In this document: positions 39,342-63,823 of the stretch, piece after piece | Layout of the letters: the number at the start of each line of letters is the position of its first letter | Position numbering within the stretch: the first letter of the stretch is position 1 | Source of the DNA: an uncultured Algibacter sp. | GTDB taxonomy: Bacteria > Bacteroidota > Bacteroidia > Flavobacteriales > Flavobacteriaceae | DNA length: 64,000 bases | Direction of reading: 5' to 3' | Assembly (NCBI RefSeq): GCF_947487575.1 | Contig: NZ_CANKXG010000011.1 | Span: forward strand, 1 to 64,000 | Position numbers and translations under genes: made by a program | The notes under the pieces: model-generated | What the model saw: the letters and a program-made list of their open reading frames with translations, nothing else | Databases searched by the model: none | Told to the model about the DNA's origin: nothing

Positions 39342-39389
39342 TTCTTTTATTTTATAGTAAGATTTGACGAGAACGTCGAAGGAAGTTTA

Positions 39390-39489
39390 CACTGCCTTTA
39401 GCATTTTTACTTGTGCTGAACTCGTTTCAGTGTCTTATGAATTTTAGTTCAATACAAAGAGGTTGCAATCAGTCAAATCCTTCCTCTAT
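39390..39489 (-). ncRNA. Probable SAM-II riboswitch in the metK leader
   Basis: Read on the minus strand, the RNA starts with the P1 strand AGAGG (39487-39483), then GGATTTGACTGATTGCAA, then the closing CCTCT (39462-39458), and ends with ATGCTAAAGGCAGT (39404-39391). This matches the SAM-II pattern: P1 stem, GATTT loop, ATTGCAA and the downstream GCTAAA segment. The pseudoknot can form by GC/GC and ACTG/CAGT pairing. The loop between P1 and GCTAAA is unusually long and holds a CTGAA/TTCAG hairpin from an intergenic repeat (39410-39433). The aptamer ends 49 bases before the metK ATG. SAM-II is known from Bacteroidota; the fold here is by eye. Confidence 0.75.
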
Positions 39490-39501
39490 TAATTGTTTCA
39501 A

Positions 39502-55375: not shown

Positions 55376-56377
55376 ATGAAAATAGTAAACTGTAAATCAA
55401 CTATGTTAAAATCAACATTTTATTTATTATTGGGATTTGTCTTTTTTGCAAGTATATCCTGCCAGTCTAAAGACGAAAAAATTAAAGTTTTAATTGTTGA
55501 TGGACAAAATAATCACGTAGTGTGGCCTAAATCAACAATAATGATGAAGCAATATTTGGAAGAAACTGGTGTGTTTCAAGTTGATATTTCTAGGACTCAA
55601 TTCTTGAATAAAAGTGAAACGTTTAGTGAATGGTTAGCATTAGCTGATGTTCCTAAAGGTGTTGAAGGTAAACCGAAAACGGATCCAGGTTTTAATCCAG
55701 ATTTTTCAAAATATGATGTTGTTATTTCTAATTTTGGCTGGCAGGCAGCATCTTGGTCTGAGAAAACAAAGGCGGAATTTGAGACTTATGTGAATAATGG
55801 TGGCGGTTTTGTTAGTGTCCATGCTGCTGATAATAGTTTCCCAGAATGGAAAGCATATAATAAAATGATTGCTATTGGTGGTTGGGGAAATAGAAATGAA
55901 AAAGATGGGCCTTATTTATACGTGGATAAAGATAATATGCCTAAAAGAGATTATACTGAAGGGGCTGCAGGTAGCCATGGTCCCAAAGAACCATTTCTTG
56001 TGACTACTTACAATAAAGAACATCCGATTACAAAAGGTATGCCTGATTCATGGATGCACACCAGTGATGAATGTTATGCGTTTTTAAGAGGACCTGCTGA
56101 GAATGTAACTATTTTGGCTACAGCGTTATCAAGTAAAAAAGCACCAGAGTTAGAACAAAAAGAACCCGTAGTCATGGCCATAGATTATGGTAAAGGCAGA
56201 GTTTTTCACACAACTCTTGGTCACGATACAACATCATTTGAATGTGTTGGTTTTATAACGCTTTTAAGACGAGGCGTTGAATGGGCAGCTACAGGGCAAG
56301 TTGTTAATAATGAGATGCCTGAAGATTTTCCTACTGCTCAAAAAACAGCTTCTAGGTCTTTTAAAGTACAGAAATGA
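55376..56377 (+). CDS. ThuA-domain lipoprotein (trehalose-utilisation-like)
   Basis: This 333-residue protein has an SPII signal with Cys29 from the first ATG (a second ATG at 55403 would shorten the leader) and a class I glutamine-amidotransferase-like ThuA domain (about 35-310), with the FVSVHAADNSFPEW and FHTTLGHD segments. ThuA proteins occur with keto-disaccharide pathways. It ends the keto-sugar run. The 467 bases that follow contain the arginine-operon leader. Confidence 0.88.
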   Translation: MKIVNCKSTMLKSTFYLLLGFVFFASISCQSKDEKIKVLIVDGQNNHVVWPKSTIMMKQYLEETGVFQVDISRTQFLNKSETFSEWLALADVPKGVEGKPKTDPGFNPDFSKYDVVISNFGWQAASWSEKTKAEFETYVNNGGGFVSVHAADNSFPEWKAYNKMIAIGGWGNRNEKDGPYLYVDKDNMPKRDYTEGAAGSHGPKEPFLVTTYNKEHPITKGMPDSWMHTSDECYAFLRGPAENVTILATALSSKKAPELEQKEPVVMAIDYGKGRVFHTTLGHDTTSFECVGFITLLRRGVEWAATGQVVNNEMPEDFPTAQKTASRSFKVQK

Positions 56378-56469
56378 TTATAGGAACGGCCATTTTAATT
56401 AACTTTCAAAGTAAAATTTGCTAAAAATCCGTTATAAAATTAAGTTTTTTGAAACAAAAGCATGAAATA

Positions 56470-56514
56470 ATAGAAATTTCTATAATTGTTGTTAAAAACT
56501 CTATGATTTTTAAC
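56470..56514. promoter_or_regulatory. Two dyads upstream of the arginine leader
   Basis: A 14-bp perfect palindrome ATAGAAATTTCTAT lies at 56470-56483. An 8-bp inverted repeat GTTAAAAA/TTTTTAAC with an 8-base gap follows at 56491-56514. They lie 33-77 bases before the first Arg-rich mini-ORF and may be operators, for instance for an arginine repressor, or RNA hairpins. A box TAGTTTTA (56535-56542) has one mismatch to TAnnTTTG, but it lies so close to the mini-ORF start that I do not call it the promoter. Confidence 0.45.
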
Positions 56515-56546
56515 CATTTAAAAAAATAATATCTTAGTTTTACACT

Positions 56547-56618
56547 GTGAAAAATTTAAAAAATAAAATACGTTGTTCTACTCCCGGTTTGCCCGTGCGC
56601 AATCGCCGTCGCTTCTAA
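56547..56618 (+). CDS. Arg-rich leader peptide 1 of the arginine/proline operon
   Basis: A 23-codon frame starts at GTG 56547 (an in-frame stop at 56535 excludes a longer frame) and ends at TAA 56616-56618. The last residues read VRNRRRF, and five of 23 codons are Arg (CGT or CGC), four of them in the final six sense codons. The segment is a clear GC-rich island in very AT-rich DNA. Its position upstream of argG-argC suggests an arginine-sensing leader. No terminator is seen between it and the first enzyme gene. The GTG start is inferred. Confidence 0.6.
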   Translation: MKNLKNKIRCSTPGLPVRNRRRF

Positions 56619-56731
56619 TGCTCCAATATTAGTAAAAACCAAACGTAATTTTAATTTTTCAAAAAGTGTCTAAAAATTTTCTCATAGTATTTCAAAATAA
56701 AGTTAATTCGATAATTAACAACAGTTCTATT

Positions 56732-56761
56732 ATGCGCCGTAAATTTCCACGTCGCCCGTAA
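56732..56761 (+). CDS. Arg-rich leader peptide 2 of the arginine/proline operon
   Basis: A nine-codon frame starts with ATG at 56732 and reads MRRKFPRRP before TAA at 56759-56761. Four of nine codons are Arg (CGC/CGT) and one is Lys. It follows the first mini-ORF by 113 bases; a 7-bp hairpin (GTTAATT/AATTAAC, 56702-56719) lies just before it. Two independent Arg-rich mini-ORFs in one leader make chance unlikely. The first operon gene starts 83 bases later. Confidence 0.6.
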   Translation: MRRKFPRRP

Positions 56762-56844
56762 GGGTATGTATCAATTTATTGAATTAGGTGAGTCCAGTTC
56801 AGCTTTAAAAACAGATAGTAATTGACATTAATAAAGACAAGGAA

Positions 56845-57459
56845 ATGAAGGTTGTAATAGCCGATAAATCACACATTAAATATGCAGATGTAATTTGTGA
56901 AACCATTGAAGCCTCAGCTCAAATTAGAGGTACGGGTATCGCAAAACGTACACCTGAATATGTAGCATCCAAAATGGAAAATGGAAATGCTGTTATTGCT
57001 ATTGAAAATAGTAAATTTGCAGGGTTTTGTTATATAGAAAAGTGGGGTCATGGTAAGTTTGTTGCCAACTCTGGTTTAATAGTACATCCGGATTTTAGAG
57101 GAAGAGGACTTGCTAAAAAAATTAAGCATAAAGTATTTGAGCATTCTAGAAATAAGTTTCCAGATGCTAAGGTGTTTAGTATTACTACGGGCCCAGCTGT
57201 TATGAAAATGAATAGTGATTTAGGTTATAAACCTGTACCGTTTTCTGAGTTAACAGACGATTCAACTTTTTGGGATGGTTGTCAAACTTGTAAAAATTAC
57301 GATGTTTTAACACGCACAAACAGAAAAATGTGTTTATGTACAGGTATGTTGTACGACCCTAAAAGTAAAAAAGAAGATATAAAGCCAATAAAAGAAAGCG
57401 TGTTTATGCGTTTAAAGAAAATCAAGCAAGCTTTGTTTTTAAAAAAAGATAAAAAATAA
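56845..57459 (+). CDS. GNAT acetyltransferase heading the arginine operon
   Basis: This 204-residue protein has a GNAT core with the acyl-CoA loop pattern VHPDFRGRGLAKKIKHKVFE (about 84-103) and a Cys-rich tail (C146, C149, plus CLC near 169). It sits four bases before argG. The same order (GNAT, argG, argC, argD, proC) is recalled from Bacteroides. Since no ArgA or ArgJ is seen here and Bacteroidota use N-acylated intermediates, it is a good candidate for the first N-acylglutamate-forming step. That role is inference. Confidence 0.82.
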   Translation: MKVVIADKSHIKYADVICETIEASAQIRGTGIAKRTPEYVASKMENGNAVIAIENSKFAGFCYIEKWGHGKFVANSGLIVHPDFRGRGLAKKIKHKVFEHSRNKFPDAKVFSITTGPAVMKMNSDLGYKPVPFSELTDDSTFWDGCQTCKNYDVLTRTNRKMCLCTGMLYDPKSKKEDIKPIKESVFMRLKKIKQALFLKKDKK

Positions 57460-57463
57460 TAAA

Positions 57464-58639
57464 ATGAAAAAATTAGTAATAGCCTATAGCGGTGGATTAG
57501 ATACTTCATATTGTGCGGTAAGTTTATCGAAGGAATATGATGTACATGCAGTAAGTGTAAATACAGGTGGATTTACAGATGAAGAAATAAAGCATATAGA
57601 AAGTAACGCTTATAAAATGGGAGTTTCAACATATAAAAATATTGATGCGGTAGCCACATTTTACCAAAAAGTAGTGAAGTATTTAATATTTGGAAATGTT
57701 TTAAAAAACAGCACATATCCTCTTTCTGTAAGTGCAGAACGTATTATTCAAGCCATTGAAATTATTGAATATGCAAAGAGTATTGATGCAGAATATATTG
57801 CTCACGGAAGTACTGGTGCAGGAAATGACCAAGTACGTTTTGATATGATTTTTCAAACATTGGCGCCAAATATTAAAATTATTACACCAATTAGAGACGA
57901 GAAATTAACTAGACAAGAAGAAATTGACTATTTAAAATCTGAGGGTATTGATATGCCTTGGGAAAAATCTAAATACTCTGTAAACAAAGGGCTTTGGGGG
58001 ACAAGTGTTGGTGGTGTTGAAACTTTAGAATCTGAAAAACCTTTACCATGTGAAGCATATCCGTCGCAGTTAGAAAAAGAAGGCGAAGAAAAAGTATCAT
58101 TGACTTTTAAGAATGGTGAGTTTGTGGCGTTAAATGGAGAAGAAAATACTCCTGAAGTAAATATTGAGAAATTAAACGATATAGCCTCGGCATATGCCAT
58201 TGGTAGAGATATTCACGTTGGAGATACCATTGTTGGGACAAAAGGACGTGTTGGTTTTGAAGCTGCTGCTGCTTTAATTACAGTAAAAGCACATCATTTA
58301 TTAGAAAAGCACACACTTACTAAATGGCAATTACAACACAAAGAATATTTGTCTAGTTTCTACGGGATGCATTTACATGAAGGTCAGTATTTAGACCCTG
58401 TAATGAGAGATATTGAATCCTTTTTACAAAGTTCTCAAAAGATGGTTTCTGGTAATGTTGTTGTGGCTTTAAAACCGTATCACTTTTCTTTAGATGGTAT
58501 TGTATCAGACCATGATTTAATGTCGAGTAAGTTTAGTACGTATGGTGAAGAAAACAAAGCTTGGACTGCTGATGATGCAAAAGGATTTATTAAAATTCTA
58601 GGAAACCAAAATAAAATATACAGACAAGTAAATTCTTAA
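57464..58639 (+). CDS. argG: Argininosuccinate synthase
   Basis: This 391-residue enzyme joins citrulline and aspartate using ATP. The PP-loop AYSGGLDTS is at residues 7-15, and STGAGNDQVRF (about 115-125) and the SPMRSL-equivalent C-terminal region are intact in form. Length is normal for the family. It follows the GNAT gene by four bases and precedes argC by three. Confidence 0.96.
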   Translation: MKKLVIAYSGGLDTSYCAVSLSKEYDVHAVSVNTGGFTDEEIKHIESNAYKMGVSTYKNIDAVATFYQKVVKYLIFGNVLKNSTYPLSVSAERIIQAIEIIEYAKSIDAEYIAHGSTGAGNDQVRFDMIFQTLAPNIKIITPIRDEKLTRQEEIDYLKSEGIDMPWEKSKYSVNKGLWGTSVGGVETLESEKPLPCEAYPSQLEKEGEEKVSLTFKNGEFVALNGEENTPEVNIEKLNDIASAYAIGRDIHVGDTIVGTKGRVGFEAAAALITVKAHHLLEKHTLTKWQLQHKEYLSSFYGMHLHEGQYLDPVMRDIESFLQSSQKMVSGNVVVALKPYHFSLDGIVSDHDLMSSKFSTYGEENKAWTADDAKGFIKILGNQNKIYRQVNS

Positions 58640-58642
58640 GAT

Positions 58643-59620
58643 ATGATTAAGGTTGGAATTATAGGAGGTGCAGGATATACAGCAGGCGAATTAATTAGAT
58701 TGTTAATTAATCATCCTGAAACTGATATTGATTTTGTTTTTAGTACCAGTAATGCTGGAAACAAGATTAGCAAGATTCATCAAGATTTAGTGGGTAGTTT
58801 AAATTTGAAATTTACAGATACTGTAAATCCAAATATTGATGTGTTGTTTTTGTGTTTAGGGCATGGGAATTCGGTAAAATTTTTATCTGCAAACACATTT
58901 TCTGAAGACACTAAGATTATTGATTTAGGAAATGATTTTAGGCTGGAAGCAGACAAAATTTTTGAAGGTAAAACTTTTGTGTATGGTTTGCCAGAATTAA
59001 ATAAAGATGCCATTGTAAAAGCAAAATATATTGCAAACCCTGGATGTTTTGCTACGGCGATTCAATTGGGGTTGTTGCCGTTAGCTGATGCTGGTTTAAT
59101 TAAAAAAGATGTACATGTTAATGCGGTAACTGGTGCTACTGGTGCTGGAACATCATTATCTGCTACAACGCATTATACGTGGCGAGATAATAATTTTTCG
59201 TATTACAAACCCTTTACGCACCAGCATTTAGGTGAAATCAATCAGTCTGTGAATCAATTACAATCTGATTTTTCTTCTGAAATTATTTTTATGCCAAATA
59301 GGGGTAATTTTTCCAGAGGTATTTTTGCAACAATTTATACTGATTTTGAGGGCGATGTTGAAGATGCTAAAGCGATTTATAAATCGTTTTACAATGATGC
59401 GAAGTTTACCTTTGTGTCAGACGACTTTTTACATATGAAACAGGTAGTAAATACCAACAAATGTTTGGTACATCTACATAAGCATAATGGTAAATTATTA
59501 ATTACAAGTACTATTGATAATTTATTGAAAGGTGCCTCTGGACAAGCAGTACAGAATATGAATTTAATGTTTGGCTTAGATGAAACGACTGGACTAGGAT
59601 TAAAAGGGACTTACTTTTAG
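58643..59620 (+). CDS. argC: N-acetyl-gamma-glutamyl-phosphate reductase
   Basis: This 325-residue enzyme reduces the acylated glutamyl phosphate to the semialdehyde. The NADP motif GIIGGAGYTAGELIRLL is at 5-21 and the catalytic Cys135 is in ANPGCFATA. In Bacteroidota the acyl group may be succinyl rather than acetyl. It is followed by 297 bases of repeat-rich DNA before proC on the same strand. Confidence 0.95.
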   Translation: MIKVGIIGGAGYTAGELIRLLINHPETDIDFVFSTSNAGNKISKIHQDLVGSLNLKFTDTVNPNIDVLFLCLGHGNSVKFLSANTFSEDTKIIDLGNDFRLEADKIFEGKTFVYGLPELNKDAIVKAKYIANPGCFATAIQLGLLPLADAGLIKKDVHVNAVTGATGAGTSLSATTHYTWRDNNFSYYKPFTHQHLGEINQSVNQLQSDFSSEIIFMPNRGNFSRGIFATIYTDFEGDVEDAKAIYKSFYNDAKFTFVSDDFLHMKQVVNTNKCLVHLHKHNGKLLITSTIDNLLKGASGQAVQNMNLMFGLDETTGLGLKGTYF

Positions 59621-59747
59621 CTCCACTTAACCTCCTCGAAGGGGGAGGAAAAGGATTGACATGCGCGAGGTTTTAAAATCTTGTAGGTCTGAGTAAGAAG
59701 ATTTGAGTAAGAGTTCTTCTCCTTAGGAAGGGTTAGGGGAGGTTTCC
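59621..59747 (+). repeat. Cluster of short G/C-rich repeats after argC
   Basis: Three blocks follow each other. CCTCCTCGAAGGGGGAGG (about 59631-59648) is a hairpin. The block near 59660-59700 contains GAGGTTTTAAAATCTTGTAGG and GTCTGAGTAAG, which resembles the inserted segment of repeat copy A. TCTCCTTAGGAAGGGTTAGG, ending in GGAGG (59718-59743), is a GGGGAGG-type repeat. None encodes a protein that I can support. Confidence 0.6.
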
Positions 59748-59836
59748 GCGTTAGGGATAGAAGAGGAAAGCCCAAAGCCCGACGAAGGAGGTGTGAGGAC
59801 TTATAACGGATAGCCCGACCCCTTGTGGGTAGCGCC
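59748..59836 (+). repeat. Dispersed GCGTTA repeat, copy D
   Basis: This is a diverged 89-bp copy. It starts GCGTTAGGGATAGAAGAGG, contains AAAGCCCGACGAAGGAGGTG and ends GTAGCGCC, with TAGCGC in place of TAACGC at the right end. It lies inside the arginine/proline operon between argC and proC, in sense orientation. Confidence 0.85.
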
Positions 59837-59853
59837 ATAAAAAATAAAATAGA

Positions 59854-59871
59854 TTCCTGCCTGCGCAGGAA
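59854..59871 (+). repeat. Short TTCCTGC hairpin repeat before proC
   Basis: TTCCTGC and GCAGGAA close a CTGC loop, giving a perfect 7-bp stem 47 bases before proC. No T-run follows. Confidence 0.55.
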
Positions 59872-59917
59872 AGACAAATAAAAGGAACAAGTTTTCAACT
59901 TTGAAAAGACATTAATT

Positions 59918-60712
59918 ATGAAAATAGCGATTATTGGAACTGGTAATTTAGGAAGCTCGATTGCCAAGGGTTTGATTGGGAATAAATCGTTTACAACGCT
60001 GTATTTGAGTGATATTAATACAGGGAATGTAGATAAATTTGGCGTTGAAGATGGCGTGACTGTGACGAATGATAATACGTTGGCGGTAGAGGAGTCTGAT
60101 ATTGTAATTTTTGCGCTTCAGCCTAAACATATTGATAAGGTAATGGCTGGTGTTGCTGATAAAATCACTGATAGTCATGTGATAATGTCGGTTGCTGCAG
60201 GTGTTGAGATTGAGAGGATTGAAGGTGTGATTGGATATGATAAAACGATTATTCGTGTGATGCCAAATACGGCAATTTCTATTGGGAAATCGATGACCTG
60301 TTTAGCGGCAAATGATAAAGGCAAAGCTAAAATGGATTTGGCAAAAGGGATTTTTAACCAGTTAGGGACAACTATGGTAATTCCGGAGGACCAAATACAA
60401 GCGGCTACTGTTATTTGTGCGAGCGGTATTGCGTTTTGGATGAGACTGGTTCGTGCTACTACGCAAGGTGCTATTCAGTTAGGTTTTGAGGCTGAAGAGG
60501 CGCACGAATTAGCAGTGCAAACCTGCTTTGGGTCTGCAAGTTTATTGATAGAATCCGGTAGACACCCAGAGCAAGAAATTGATAGAGTTACCACGCCAAG
60601 TGGATGTACTATTGAAGGTTTAAATGAAATGGAACACCAAGGTTTAAGCTCTGCTTTAATTCAAGGAATTACGGCATCTTTTGAAAAAATTAACCAATTA
60701 AAGAAAAACTAA
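59918..60712 (+). CDS. proC: Pyrroline-5-carboxylate reductase
   Basis: This 264-residue enzyme performs the last step of proline synthesis. The Rossmann motif IIGTGNLGSSIAKGL is at 4-18, VMPNTA appears near 111, and the C-terminal TTPSGCTIEGLNEME segment (about 226-240) is typical. It sits between arginine genes, two bases before argD, so proline and arginine synthesis share a transcript. Confidence 0.95.
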   Translation: MKIAIIGTGNLGSSIAKGLIGNKSFTTLYLSDINTGNVDKFGVEDGVTVTNDNTLAVEESDIVIFALQPKHIDKVMAGVADKITDSHVIMSVAAGVEIERIEGVIGYDKTIIRVMPNTAISIGKSMTCLAANDKGKAKMDLAKGIFNQLGTTMVIPEDQIQAATVICASGIAFWMRLVRATTQGAIQLGFEAEEAHELAVQTCFGSASLLIESGRHPEQEIDRVTTPSGCTIEGLNEMEHQGLSSALIQGITASFEKINQLKKN

Positions 60713-60713
60713 C

Positions 60714-61862
60714 ATGCCACTTTTTAATGTTTACCCACTTTATGATGTAACACCAGTTTCAGGGAAAGGTGTTTACGTTTACGATGAAAAAGGAACCGAA
60801 TATTTAGACCTTTATGGCGGTCATGCTGTGATTTCTATTGGACATGCGCATCCTAAATATGTTGAGGCTGTGACTAATCAAGTTTCTAAGCTTGGATTTT
60901 ATTCGAATGCGATTCAGAATCCTTTACAGGTTGAATTGGCAGATAAAATAGAAGCACATTCTGGTTGCAAGGATTATGAACTTTTTTTATGTAGTTCTGG
61001 TGCAGAAGCTAATGAAAATGCTTTAAAATTAGCCTCTTTTAGAACAGGAAAAGCTAGAGTTTTAGCGTTTAGTAATGGGTTTCATGGGCGTACATCGGCA
61101 GCTGTAGCGGCTACTGATAACAAGAATATTATTGCGCCAATTAATGCGCAACAGGCAGTAGCTATTTTGCCTTTAAATGATATTGAAGGTGTTAAAAAAG
61201 AGCTTGAAAAAGGCGATGTTTGCGCTGTTATTGTTGAGTTTATTCAGGGTGTTGGTGGATTAGACGAAGGCTCAGCTGAGTTTTTTGAGGCTGTTGATGC
61301 TTTATGTAAAGCGAATAACACCATGTTTATTGCCGATGAGGTGCAATCTGGCTACGGACGTTCTGGGAAATTCTTTGCGTTTCAACATTATAATGTAAAC
61401 CCAGATATTATTTCTATAGCCAAAGGTATGGGGAATGGTTTTCCTATTGGTGGGATTTTGATTCATCCTGATATTGAAGCAAAGTTTGGTATGTTAGGAA
61501 CTACTTTTGGAGGTAATCATTTGGCATGTGCTGCTGGTTTATCAGTTTTAAATGTTATTGAAGAGCAGAAATTAATAGACAATGTTAATGCAATGTCTAT
61601 GTACTTTATAAAATTGGCTGAAACGATACCGCAAATAAAAAATATTAAAGGAAGAGGCTTAATGCTTGGTTTAGAATTTGATTTTGAGGTGGGCGATTTA
61701 AGAAAAAAATTAATTTACGACCATAATATTTTTACAGGTGGTGCTGCAAATAAAAAATTACTAAGGATTTTACCACCATTAACGGTTAGAAAGGAACATA
61801 TCAGTATGTTTTTTGAAGCATTAATTGAGGTTTTATCTGAAGTTAAATCAACTGTTGTATAA
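60714..61862 (+). CDS. argD: Acyl-ornithine aminotransferase
   Basis: This 382-residue PLP enzyme transaminates the N-acylglutamate semialdehyde to N-acylornithine. The cofactor lysine is K237 in SIAKGMGNG, ADEVQSGYGR spans 207-216, and SSGAEANENALK spans 94-105. It lies one base pair from proC and precedes proA directly. Ornithine aminotransferase is an alternative, but the operon favours the biosynthetic role. Confidence 0.92.
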   Translation: MPLFNVYPLYDVTPVSGKGVYVYDEKGTEYLDLYGGHAVISIGHAHPKYVEAVTNQVSKLGFYSNAIQNPLQVELADKIEAHSGCKDYELFLCSSGAEANENALKLASFRTGKARVLAFSNGFHGRTSAAVAATDNKNIIAPINAQQAVAILPLNDIEGVKKELEKGDVCAVIVEFIQGVGGLDEGSAEFFEAVDALCKANNTMFIADEVQSGYGRSGKFFAFQHYNVNPDIISIAKGMGNGFPIGGILIHPDIEAKFGMLGTTFGGNHLACAAGLSVLNVIEEQKLIDNVNAMSMYFIKLAETIPQIKNIKGRGLMLGLEFDFEVGDLRKKLIYDHNIFTGGAANKKLLRILPPLTVRKEHISMFFEALIEVLSEVKSTVV

Positions 61863-61863
61863 C

Positions 61864-63057
61864 ATGAATACACTATTATCTATAGAAACTAGAAATGCTA
61901 TTTTGCTTAAAATGGCTGTGCTTTTAGAGCATGAACGAGAAGCTTTAATTGCAATTAATAAAACAGATTTAGACGCTTATAAGGGCGATGATATATCTAT
62001 GTTTGACCGTTTAAAAGTGGATGATGCTAAAGTTGATGAGATGATAAAATCGGTAACGCATTTAGCATCTCAGGAAGACCCTGTTGGTGTTGAACGTTTT
62101 AGTTTTAAGCATGACAATGGGATGCAGATTTACAATAAAACGGCGTCGTTTGGAGCGGTGTTGATTATATACGAATCGCGTCCAGATGTTACAGTTGAAG
62201 CTGCTGGAATTGCTTTTAAATCTGGAAACAAAATACTGCTTAAAGGCGGAAAGGAATCATTACGCTCAAATTTAAAAATTGTTGAGTTATGGCATGAGGC
62301 TTTAAAAGCTTATGATGCATCAACAAATTGGGTGGAATATTTGCAGTTTAACAGAACTGAAACGCAAGCATTTTTAGAAAAGCCAACTCAAAAAGTTGAT
62401 TTGATTGTGCCTCGTGGTGGTGAACGTTTAATTGCTTTTGTGAAACAACACGCTACATGCCCTGTGATTATAAGTGGACGAGGAAACAATTTTGTATATG
62501 TGCATAAGGAAGCCGATTTAGATATTGCCATTGATGTGATTATGAATGGGAAGTCTAAAATTTCAGCTTGTAATGCAGTTGATAAGGTTTTGATAGATGA
62601 AAACCTTCCAAATAAGGATGAGTTTGTTAAAACATTGATTTCAAAGTTAAAAGAATCTAAAATTGAGGTTTTAGGGGATGATATAGTCTCAAAAGATAAT
62701 GGACTTGAAACTATCAAGTCTGATGATATCTGGTATAAAGAATTTTTAGATTACAAGATTTTAATAGGCGAAATAGCATCAAACCAAGATGCTATTGCCA
62801 TGATTAATAAGTACTCTGGAGGGCATTCATCATCCATTATTACAAGCAATGATGACGAGGCAAAACTGTTTATGGAAAATGTAGATACAGCAGCAGTATA
62901 TCATAATGCATCAACGCGATTTACGGATGGAGGGCAGTTAGGATTAGGTGGTGAATTAGCAATTAGTACAGATAAATTACACCAACGCGGACCAATTGGA
63001 TTACAACATTTAGTAACTAATAAATGGTATGTTCATGGTAATGGACAAATAAGATAA
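61864..63057 (+). CDS. proA: Gamma-glutamyl phosphate reductase
   Basis: This 397-residue enzyme makes glutamate semialdehyde for proline. The catalytic Cys236 lies in SACNAVDKVL, ESRPDVTVEA spans 104-113, and a HASTRF-like segment (HNASTRFTDG) is present near the end. The ATG at 61864 is chosen over an upstream start inside argD because it gives the standard N-terminus. It precedes proB by one base. Confidence 0.95.
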   Translation: MNTLLSIETRNAILLKMAVLLEHEREALIAINKTDLDAYKGDDISMFDRLKVDDAKVDEMIKSVTHLASQEDPVGVERFSFKHDNGMQIYNKTASFGAVLIIYESRPDVTVEAAGIAFKSGNKILLKGGKESLRSNLKIVELWHEALKAYDASTNWVEYLQFNRTETQAFLEKPTQKVDLIVPRGGERLIAFVKQHATCPVIISGRGNNFVYVHKEADLDIAIDVIMNGKSKISACNAVDKVLIDENLPNKDEFVKTLISKLKESKIEVLGDDIVSKDNGLETIKSDDIWYKEFLDYKILIGEIASNQDAIAMINKYSGGHSSSIITSNDDEAKLFMENVDTAAVYHNASTRFTDGGQLGLGGELAISTDKLHQRGPIGLQHLVTNKWYVHGNGQIR

Positions 63058-63058
63058 G

Positions 63059-63823
63059 ATGCAGAAAAAGAAACGCATATTACTAAAAATAGGGTCAAAT
63101 ACCTTAACTAAAGAAACCGATAATATTTCTAGAGGTAAGATTGAAGACATTGCAAATCAGATTGCAAAACTTCAAGATACTTGCGAGTTTATTATTGTGA
63201 GTTCTGGTGCTATTGCTGTGGCAAAACAATTTGTGAAATTGGAAAGCAAGCAAAAAGAAGTTTTCGTAAAACAAGCATTAGCATCTATTGGTCAGCCACA
63301 TTTGATAAGGATTTATCAAGAGATTTTTAGAGAATATGGGTTGTTAACCTCGCAATGTTTATTGTCGTATTCTGATTTTGAAAAAGAAGAAAGTCGTATT
63401 AATATTACAAACACTATTAAAGTGCTAGTAAATAATAACTACATTCCTATTATAAATGAAAATGATACGGTAGCTACTGACGAAATTAAATTTGGCGATA
63501 ATGATAAATTAGGTGCTTTAACAGCGTCTCTTTTGGGGGTTGATTTATTCATGATTGCAACAAATACAAATGGGATTTACACTAAAGAATCTATTGAAAA
63601 TGGTTTACCAGAAACCATAAGTGAAGTTCAAAATTTTGATAAATTGAGAACGCAAGTGGTAAGTTCCAAATCAACACACGGTAGCGGAGGAATGGCATCA
63701 AAAATTGAAGCCGCTTCGGTTACTAAAAAGGCGAATATAGAAACATGGATTGTAAACGGGTTAGAAGATAATTTTATAGTGAATGCTATGGAAGATAAAG
63801 TGACTTTTACAAAAATAAAGTAG
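63059..63823 (+). CDS. proB: Glutamate 5-kinase, short form without PUA domain
   Basis: This 254-residue amino-acid kinase phosphorylates glutamate to start proline synthesis. It has KIGSNTLT at residues 9-16, IIVSSGAIAVAK near 47-58, INENDTVATDEIKFGDND near 137-154 and a GSGGMASKIEAA segment near 204-215. The C-terminal PUA domain of the long E. coli form is absent, which is usual in some lineages. It follows proA by one base, so both are coupled. Confidence 0.94.
   Translation: MQKKKRILLKIGSNTLTKETDNISRGKIEDIANQIAKLQDTCEFIIVSSGAIAVAKQFVKLESKQKEVFVKQALASIGQPHLIRIYQEIFREYGLLTSQCLLSYSDFEKEESRINITNTIKVLVNNNYIPIINENDTVATDEIKFGDNDKLGALTASLLGVDLFMIATNTNGIYTKESIENGLPETISEVQNFDKLRTQVVSSKSTHGSGGMASKIEAASVTKKANIETWIVNGLEDNFIVNAMEDKVTFTKIK

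What the first reader, a model, noticed from the sequence alone, without database searches (positions are those of the whole stretch)
56547..56761. Two Arg-rich mini-ORFs in tandem in the arginine/proline operon leader
The sequence shows a GTG-started frame of 23 codons ending VRNRRRF and, 113 bases later, an ATG-started frame MRRKFPRRP. Five of 23 and four of nine codons are Arg, all CGC/CGT, in otherwise very AT-rich non-coding DNA. They precede a GNAT-argG-argC-proC-argD-proA-proB run. Leader-peptide control is established for many amino-acid operons, but two tandem Arg-coding mini-ORFs without a visible intrinsic terminator is not an arrangement I know. Inference: ribosome stalling or release at the Arg codons senses charged tRNA-Arg and controls Rho-dependent termination, RNA decay or translation downstream.
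Basis: partly seen in the sequence, partly recalled or inferred. Interest (0 to 1): 0.88.

Follow-up and report, generated by a model that had tools for sequence, protein, structure and literature searches.

The report
Arginine-sensing leader of Flavobacteriaceae arg operon
Ahead of an arginine and proline gene cluster, many bacteria of the family Flavobacteriaceae keep one or two tiny arginine-rich genes and a pair of RNA hairpins that probably let a stalled ribosome report arginine shortage, without the usual stop signal for transcription.

Summary
The two mini-ORFs are real and conserved, but the second is longer than reported: its conserved start is GTG 56666 (31 codons), not ATG 56732. 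In 188 non-redundant Flavobacteriaceae leaders, ORF2 ends in Arg-Pro encoded inside a GC hairpin (A), with a stop directly after in 158. Downstream lies a covarying hairpin (B) with a nearly fixed GGUGNGUCC apex. The element matched once per genome, in 151 of 249 family genomes and, in a phylum sample, only in this family; GNAT follows within 53-78 nt in 177 of 188. Rfam 15 gave no match. Leader Arg codons are mostly CGU/CGC, against mostly AGA in genes, pointing to tRNA-Arg(ACG). A sigma-A-type box lies exactly 4 nt before ORF1 in 75 of 107, predicting a leaderless ORF1; 79 of 188 leaders lack ORF1. ArgR was not detected in 60 relatives. His and trp leaders of this genome carry strong intrinsic terminators; the arg leader does not. 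Best reading: a ribosome-mediated arginine attenuator with an unexplained, possibly new RNA read-out. Sensing rests on comparison; nothing was tested experimentally.

The parts
56535..56542 (+). TAGTTTTA, near-match to the flavobacterial sigma-A box TAnnTTTG; ends four bases before ORF1's start codon, so the predicted transcription start is the G of GTG 56547
   Evidence: With ORF1 defined without using the box, the box ends 4 nt upstream in 75 and 5 nt in 13 of 107. Box position -12 to -5 from passages of PMC9723704. Start site not measured.
56547..56618 (+). ORF1, probable leaderless Arg leader peptide VKNLKNKIRCSTPGLPVRNRRRF
   Evidence: Present in 109 of 188 leaders under the filter; dN/dS about 0.46 (36 pairs) against 1.10 in the intergenic control (19 pairs); Arg codons CGC329 CGT147 AGA48 CGA33 AGG25 CGG1 in 120 candidates, about 11 of them spurious.
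56666..56761 (+). ORF2, Arg leader peptide VSKNFLIVFQNKVNSIINNSSIMRRKFPRRP (conserved start GTG 56666)
   Evidence: In-frame NTG at -93..-78 from CGCCC in 106 of 109 tandem loci; last 13 codons dN/dS about 0.32, the part before them 0.86; stop directly after Arg-Pro in 158 of 188.
56702..56719 (+). Hairpin C, GTTAATT-CGAT-AATTAAC, inside ORF2 upstream of its Arg codons; tandem architecture only
   Evidence: Mean longest stem 6.25 against at most 5.76 in 200 arm swaps (109 tandem loci); 4.22 against 4.20 in 79 single loci.
56753..56765 (+). Hairpin A, CGCCC-GTAA-GGGT, overlapping ORF2's Arg-Pro-stop
   Evidence: CGCCC-loop-GGG in 182 of 188; 3-7 contiguous pairs, 5 in 104 of 182. Nearly invariant, so no covariation support.
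56779..56802 (+). Hairpin B, TTGAATT-A-GGTGAGTCC-AGTTCAG; two-pair apex with pentaloop UGNGU and a 5' bulge
   Evidence: Stem of 5-8 pairs in 179 of 188; mean 6.18 against at most 3.95 in 100 arm swaps. In 58 distinct sequences preselected for a one-base bulge, 7 of 9 pairs change on both sides and 69 cells do, against 16.8 in shuffles (0 of 500).
56845..57459 (+). First structural gene: GNAT-family acetyltransferase (substrate unknown)
   Evidence: Pfam PF00583, 32.8 bits; a relative lies downstream of the element in 186 of 188 leaders.
57464..63823 (+). argG-argC-proC-argD-proA-proB
   Evidence: argG and argD match their families but lie below the NCBIfam cut-offs.

Best explanation
A ribosome-mediated attenuator for arginine. 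Transcription starts at the first leader ORF, which is translated from a leaderless (or near-leaderless) 5' end. Scarce charged tRNA-Arg(ACG) stalls the ribosome on the CGU/CGC runs of ORF1 and ORF2. On the last Arg codons of ORF2 a stalled ribosome would cover hairpin A, which overlaps Arg-Pro-stop; after normal termination and release hairpin A can fold beside hairpin B. I infer that A plus B is the OFF state and that stalling keeps A open and the operon ON. Supported by comparison: the ORFs, the codon bias, the promoter spacing, hairpin B. Inferred: leaderless start, stalling, direction of the switch. Unknown: whether A+B acts on transcription (pause or weak terminator at A, or Rho), on RNA decay, or through a factor that binds the UGNGU loop. 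The confidence is for an Arg-sensing leader-peptide attenuator; no single read-out gets more than about 0.35.
For: Arg codons in the 12 ORF2 codons before the anchoring CGC: CGT283 CGC203 CGA28 AGG18 AGA16 CGG0 (188 leaders), against AGA721 CGT230 CGA198 AGG159 CGC100 CGG69 in the GNAT genes; the genome has tRNA-Arg genes ACG, UCU and UCG (2 of 34 tRNA matches not typed). Constraint lies in ORF1 and the end of ORF2. Box 4 nt before ORF1 in 75 of 107, and 4-9 nt before ORF2's ATG in 43 of 51 single leaders. One match per matching genome, GNAT downstream in 186 of 188. Of 27 family genomes (G010-G036) seen, 16 of 17 with the GNAT gene have the element and 0 of 10 without it. Hairpin B covaries. 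ArgR not detected in 60 of 60. The same genome uses his and trp leader peptides.
Against: No canonical terminator and no alternative helix shown; hairpin A has no covariation; the leader as a whole is not unusually stable (z -0.88). The near-fixed CGCCC and GGUGNGUCC exceed what a plain attenuator needs. ORF2's first part is near neutral (0.86). Seven of 80 named loci lack the strict hairpin-B motif. In 30 of 188 the stop is not directly after Pro. In F. psychrophilum only 5.5% of mapped mRNAs are leaderless (PMC9723704). In one search the number of further pair types did not exceed shuffles (16 against 14.6, 137 of 500). No expression data.
Confidence: 0.82

Rival explanations
1. Read-out 1: hairpin A is a minimal intrinsic terminator or an RNA polymerase pause hairpin, and the system is an ordinary transcription attenuator with weak parts.
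For: A loose scan finds terminator-like sites in 81 of 186 leaders against 14 expected, 84 of the 103 sites at hairpin A; the spacer after A is T-rich.
Against: Stem mostly 4-5 bp and T tract interrupted: at most 4 T in the best 8-nt window in 114 of 182; the his and trp terminators of the same genome have 12-pair stems. Leaves the fixed apex of hairpin B unexplained.
Confidence: 0.3
2. Read-out 2: hairpin B with its UGNGU pentaloop binds a protein or small molecule (riboswitch-like or protein-operator RNA), and the leader ORFs gate its folding or effect.
For: Apex nearly fixed while the stem varies (though GGTGNGTCC was part of the selection); of 12 other GGTGNGTCC sites in the genome only one has as many as 5 stem pairs, with wobbles; no Rfam match.
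Against: No ligand or protein identified. A PyrR-type binder was considered: PyrR-like genes occur in 58 of 60 genomes, with and without the element, and ten pyrR upstream regions gave one chance-like pattern hit.
Confidence: 0.35
3. ORF2 is an arrest peptide: the nascent Arg-Arg-Pro end senses arginine or another metabolite in the ribosome, rather than tRNA charging.
For: Stop directly after Arg-Pro in 158 of 188 and Arg just before it in 162; Pro at a stop codon is a feature of known arrest peptides (recalled).
Against: Strong CGU/CGC choice, which an amino-acid sequence alone does not demand; residues before the Arg run vary; the Arg-Pro codons coincide with hairpin A; ORF1 does not end in Arg-Pro in the window.
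Confidence: 0.12
4. The ORFs are by-products of a conserved GC-rich RNA element and are not regulatory coding sequences.
For: CGCCC is nearly fixed at nucleotide level and hairpin A spans Arg-Pro-stop.
Against: ORF1 ends about 135 nt upstream of hairpin A and shows coding constraint; Arg runs vary in position; starts and box spacing are kept.
Confidence: 0.04

Closest known systems
Classical his/trp ribosome-mediated attenuators
   Same: Short leader ORF with runs of codons for the end product; in this genome MTFIQSHHHFHICSQAK and MKKTLNNTWWWNFRN.
   Different: Those are followed by strong intrinsic terminators; the arg leader has none, has a two-hairpin element, and often two ORFs.
Polycysteine leaderless short-ORF attenuators of mycobacteria (Canestrari et al. 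2020; seen only as described in passages of PMC9031893 and cited in PMC13236596)
   Same: Leaderless short ORF with contiguous codons for one amino acid that controls downstream genes by elongation speed.
   Different: Cysteine, another phylum; I did not read the original, so tandem ORFs or RNA elements there are unknown to me.
Salmonella speF leader orf34 (PMC6386406, passages read, abstract among them)
   Same: Arg codons in a leader ORF and a hairpin downstream of the stop; Rho and RNase G act instead of an intrinsic terminator.
   Different: Controls ornithine decarboxylase; its sensing Arg codons are at positions 12-13 of 34; arginine destabilises the message.
S. aureus rbfL (PMC13009471, passages read, abstract among them)
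   Same: Leader ORF that senses arginine by its codons.
   Different: Rare AGA/AGG codons; a paused ribosome blocks the next binding site and lowers expression; not a biosynthetic operon.
uORFC-8-2 before cysS in Rhodobacterales (PMC8632094, passages read)
   Same: Conserved uORF with tandem Cys codons inside a structured RNA, described as ribosome-mediated attenuation.
   Different: Other amino acid, gene and class.
Leader-peptide attenuation reported for Flavobacterium psychrophilum (PMC9723704, passages read)
   Same: Same bacterial family; leader peptides suspected before amino-acid operons.
   Different: The passages name no arginine case; details are in supplements I could not read.

Membership tests
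Ribosome-mediated attenuator | Conserved short ORF in the operon leader | tested here: met
   (conservation only; translation not measured)
Ribosome-mediated attenuator | Runs of codons for the operon's product | tested here: met
   Arg 24% of the 12 ORF2 codons before the anchoring CGC, with CGU/CGC bias
Ribosome-mediated attenuator | Terminator / antiterminator alternative | tested here: inconclusive
   None by scanner in the window; loose hits in 81 of 186, mostly hairpin A; no alternative helix shown
Ribosome-mediated attenuator | Response to tRNA charging | not testable with these tools
   Needs a reporter or ribosome profiling
Leaderless leader-peptide ORF | Start codon at the mRNA 5' end | tested here: inconclusive
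   Predicted by box spacing, 75 of 107 at exactly 4 nt; start site not mapped
RNA families of Rfam 15 (riboswitches, leaders, T-box) | Match at gathering score | tested here: not met
   Window at gathering score, 56400-56900 and 56700-56900 at permissive E-values, six relatives; best weak match not obviously absurd DUF805, 22.4 of 51.1 bits, with non-standard pairs
ArgR-controlled operon | ArgR present in the genome | tested here: not met
   PF02863 in 0 of 60 genomes incl. the own; controls positive in 8 of 14
PyrR-binding RNA | PyrR distribution and loop consensus | tested here: inconclusive
   PyrR-like genes in 58 of 60 genomes irrespective of the element; loop consensus recalled; one chance-like hit in ten pyrR upstream regions
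orf34/SpeFL leader | DUF2618 peptide before speF | not tested
   Different operon; no profile search of the peptides was made

The most novel reading that the evidence does not exclude
A ribosome-gated RNA switch of a kind not yet described: leaderless, often tandem Arg leader peptides control a two-hairpin element whose UGNGU loop is recognised by an unknown factor or ligand, regulating an arginine/proline operon without an intrinsic terminator, in bacteria where ArgR is not detected.
Probability: 0.35. Interest if true: 0.82.

Novelty: new variant of a known kind. Interest (0 to 1): 0.64.

Why it matters
It suggests how a large bacterial family in which ArgR is not detected may control arginine and proline synthesis, adds a conserved RNA element without an Rfam 15 match, and gives a natural comparison inside one genome (his and trp with terminators, arg without) for learning how leader peptides act in bacteria that rarely use Shine-Dalgarno sites. 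One-ORF and two-ORF forms change at least 12 times on a quick GNAT tree (186 rows), so the role of the second ORF can be tested with natural variants.

Tried and rejected
Pseudoknot CGCC with GGUG: no association of N with the third base of the codon before CGCCC, and L244 and L254 keep CGCCC while the apex changes to GA..UC, a compensatory inner pair; disfavoured. Pairing of AGGUG with the 16S 3' end: weakened by the same variants; the 16S sequence was recalled, and the assembly search found no 16S gene. tRNA-Arg(ACG) mimicry: no likeness by eye. Hairpin at the ORF1 stop: not above arm swaps (5.80 against 5.75). PyrR binder: not supported. DUF805: taken as chance. RNAalifold on A1 gave only 5 pairs, none with double changes, because the stem-B arms were out of register.

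Counting caveats. Minus-strand loci were not turned round, so misses there include orientation errors (for example L010-L013, L017, L018, L020-L022). The 211 loci were selected by the regex GGTGNGTCC, and the anchor by CGNCC, so these letters and the Arg-Pro pair are fixed by selection (CGCCC itself in 186 of 188); 7 of 80 named and 7 of 144 unnamed loci failed the first, 3 of 211 the second; 208 reduce to 188 distinct. The 144 unnamed loci are 135 of the 151 genomes matching plus 9; L149 was left out by oversight. Some named and unnamed loci are the same organism; only identical sequences were removed. R1 was built from the same family. One search chose the spacing nearest 4 among candidates; the unbiased count is. 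The 79 'single' leaders are those failing my ORF1 filter; 51 have an ATG at -81 to -48. Outputs were cut. A2 was preselected for a one-base bulge, so its percentage paired is biased upward.

Full report
Observation. ORF1 is as described. ORF2 is real but its conserved start is GTG 56666, not ATG 56732; the latter codon is Met in 40 of 188 leaders. The operon behind is GNAT-argG-argC-proC-argD-proA-proB; argG and argD match their families but lie below the NCBIfam cut-offs. The scanner sees no intrinsic terminator in 56300-57000.

Conservation. I examined 110 loci around relatives of the GNAT gene, then leaders found with RNA model R1 in family genomes (fetched). Of 80 named loci, 73 carry GGTGNGTCC upstream of GNAT. 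In all 211 loci pass, 188 of them non-redundant with a hairpin-A anchor. A GNAT relative lies downstream in 186 of 188, within 53-78 nt of GGTG in 177 and at 82-158 nt in 9. R1 hits the own genome at E 3.3e-16, next best E 3.4. Of 249 family genomes 151 match at E 0.001, each listed with one match; in a phylum sample 13 of 247 match, all of the same family, and all 14 listed genomes of one genus of the family (g146) do not. Of the 27 family genomes G010-G036 seen in both searches have GNAT and element, 1 (G029) GNAT only, 10 neither, 0 the element only.

Two architectures. In 109 leaders an ORF1 with at least three Arg starts 190-230 nt before CGCCC. With ORF1 defined without reference to the promoter box (107 of 188), a TAnnTTT box ends exactly 4 nt upstream in 75 and 5 nt in 13. 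In F. psychrophilum this sigma-A box spans -12 to -5 (PMC9723704, passages), so a 4-nt gap puts the start codon at +1; the same paper finds only 5.5% leaderless mRNAs. Of the other 79 leaders, 51 have an ATG for ORF2 at -81 to -48, and 43 of these have a box 4-9 nt upstream, most often 7, a predicted 5' UTR of about 3 nt. On a quick GNAT tree the state changes at least 12 times.

Coding evidence. dN/dS is about 0.46 for ORF1 (36 pairs), 0.32 for the last 13 ORF2 codons (38 pairs), 0.86 for the part before them (36 pairs), 0.37 for single-architecture ORF2 (only 6 pairs) and 1.10 for the intergenic control (19 pairs). That fits a leader peptide: the Arg end matters, the rest little. Arg codons are CGU/CGC in 486 of 548 cases in the 12 ORF2 codons before the anchoring CGC, against 330 of 1477 in GNAT. 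Pro is also enriched (9.8% against 3.0%), which fits a joint arg/pro operon, but I do not claim Pro sensing.

RNA element. Hairpin A spans Arg-Pro-stop; its loop varies while CCC and GGG hardly change. Hairpin B is supported by covariation and by rare variants in which the inner G-C of the apex becomes A-U (L244, L254), so the apex is two pairs closed by UGNGU; L210/L090 change it in another way. In tandem leaders a third hairpin, C, lies within ORF2. No Rfam family matched at gathering score in the leader, nor convincingly below it.

Contrast inside the genome. The his and trp operons have textbook leader peptides with strong terminators. The arg leader does not; the excess of the loose scan (81 of 186 against 14) falls mostly on hairpin A (84 of 103 sites), a short stem with an interrupted T tract. 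ArgR was not detected in 60 of 60 relatives, the own genome included.

Mechanism. Supported by comparison: Arg leader ORFs, codon choice, promoter spacing, hairpin B. Inferred: leaderless initiation, stalling at uncharged tRNA-Arg(ACG), a stalled ribosome keeping hairpin A open. Not shown: the read-out. A weak terminator or pause at A and a factor bound to B are my two leading options; Rho and decay stay open, as in the speF leader (PMC6386406).

Literature. Eight paper searches listed no paper on an arginine leader in Flavobacteriaceae by title or abstract, the most specific, returned none. PMC9723704 reports clues for leader-peptide attenuation before amino-acid operons in F. psychrophilum without naming arginine in the passages read; its supplements could not be opened, so an arginine case may be listed there.

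Noticed in passing
window 39388-39492 (-): SAM-II riboswitch (47.2 bits, gathering 44), long-loop form.
   Followed up: no
L294:1187-1240 and the trp leader in L295 (same genome): Classical his and trp leader peptides, each followed by a strong intrinsic terminator.
   Followed up: partly
L041 (Flaviramulus MAG), upstream of GNAT: Keeps ORF1 (MRNLKNKIRCSVPGSPVRFRRRL) but has lost CGCCC and the hairpin-B motif.
   Followed up: no
L064, L065, L068 (Confluentibacter), L076, L103 (Mariniflexile): Degenerate hairpin-B apex although ORF1 is kept; possible natural loss of the read-out.
   Followed up: no
L210/L090, L244, L254: Rare hairpin-B apex variants with GAUG in place of GGUG.
   Followed up: partly
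L063:5857-5934: Flavo-1 RNA (49.4 bits) near the arg operon in a Polaribacter.
   Followed up: no
window 56647-56659 and other tandem leaders: Conserved U-rich tract shortly before ORF2's start; translation enhancer or second promoter, unknown.
   Followed up: no
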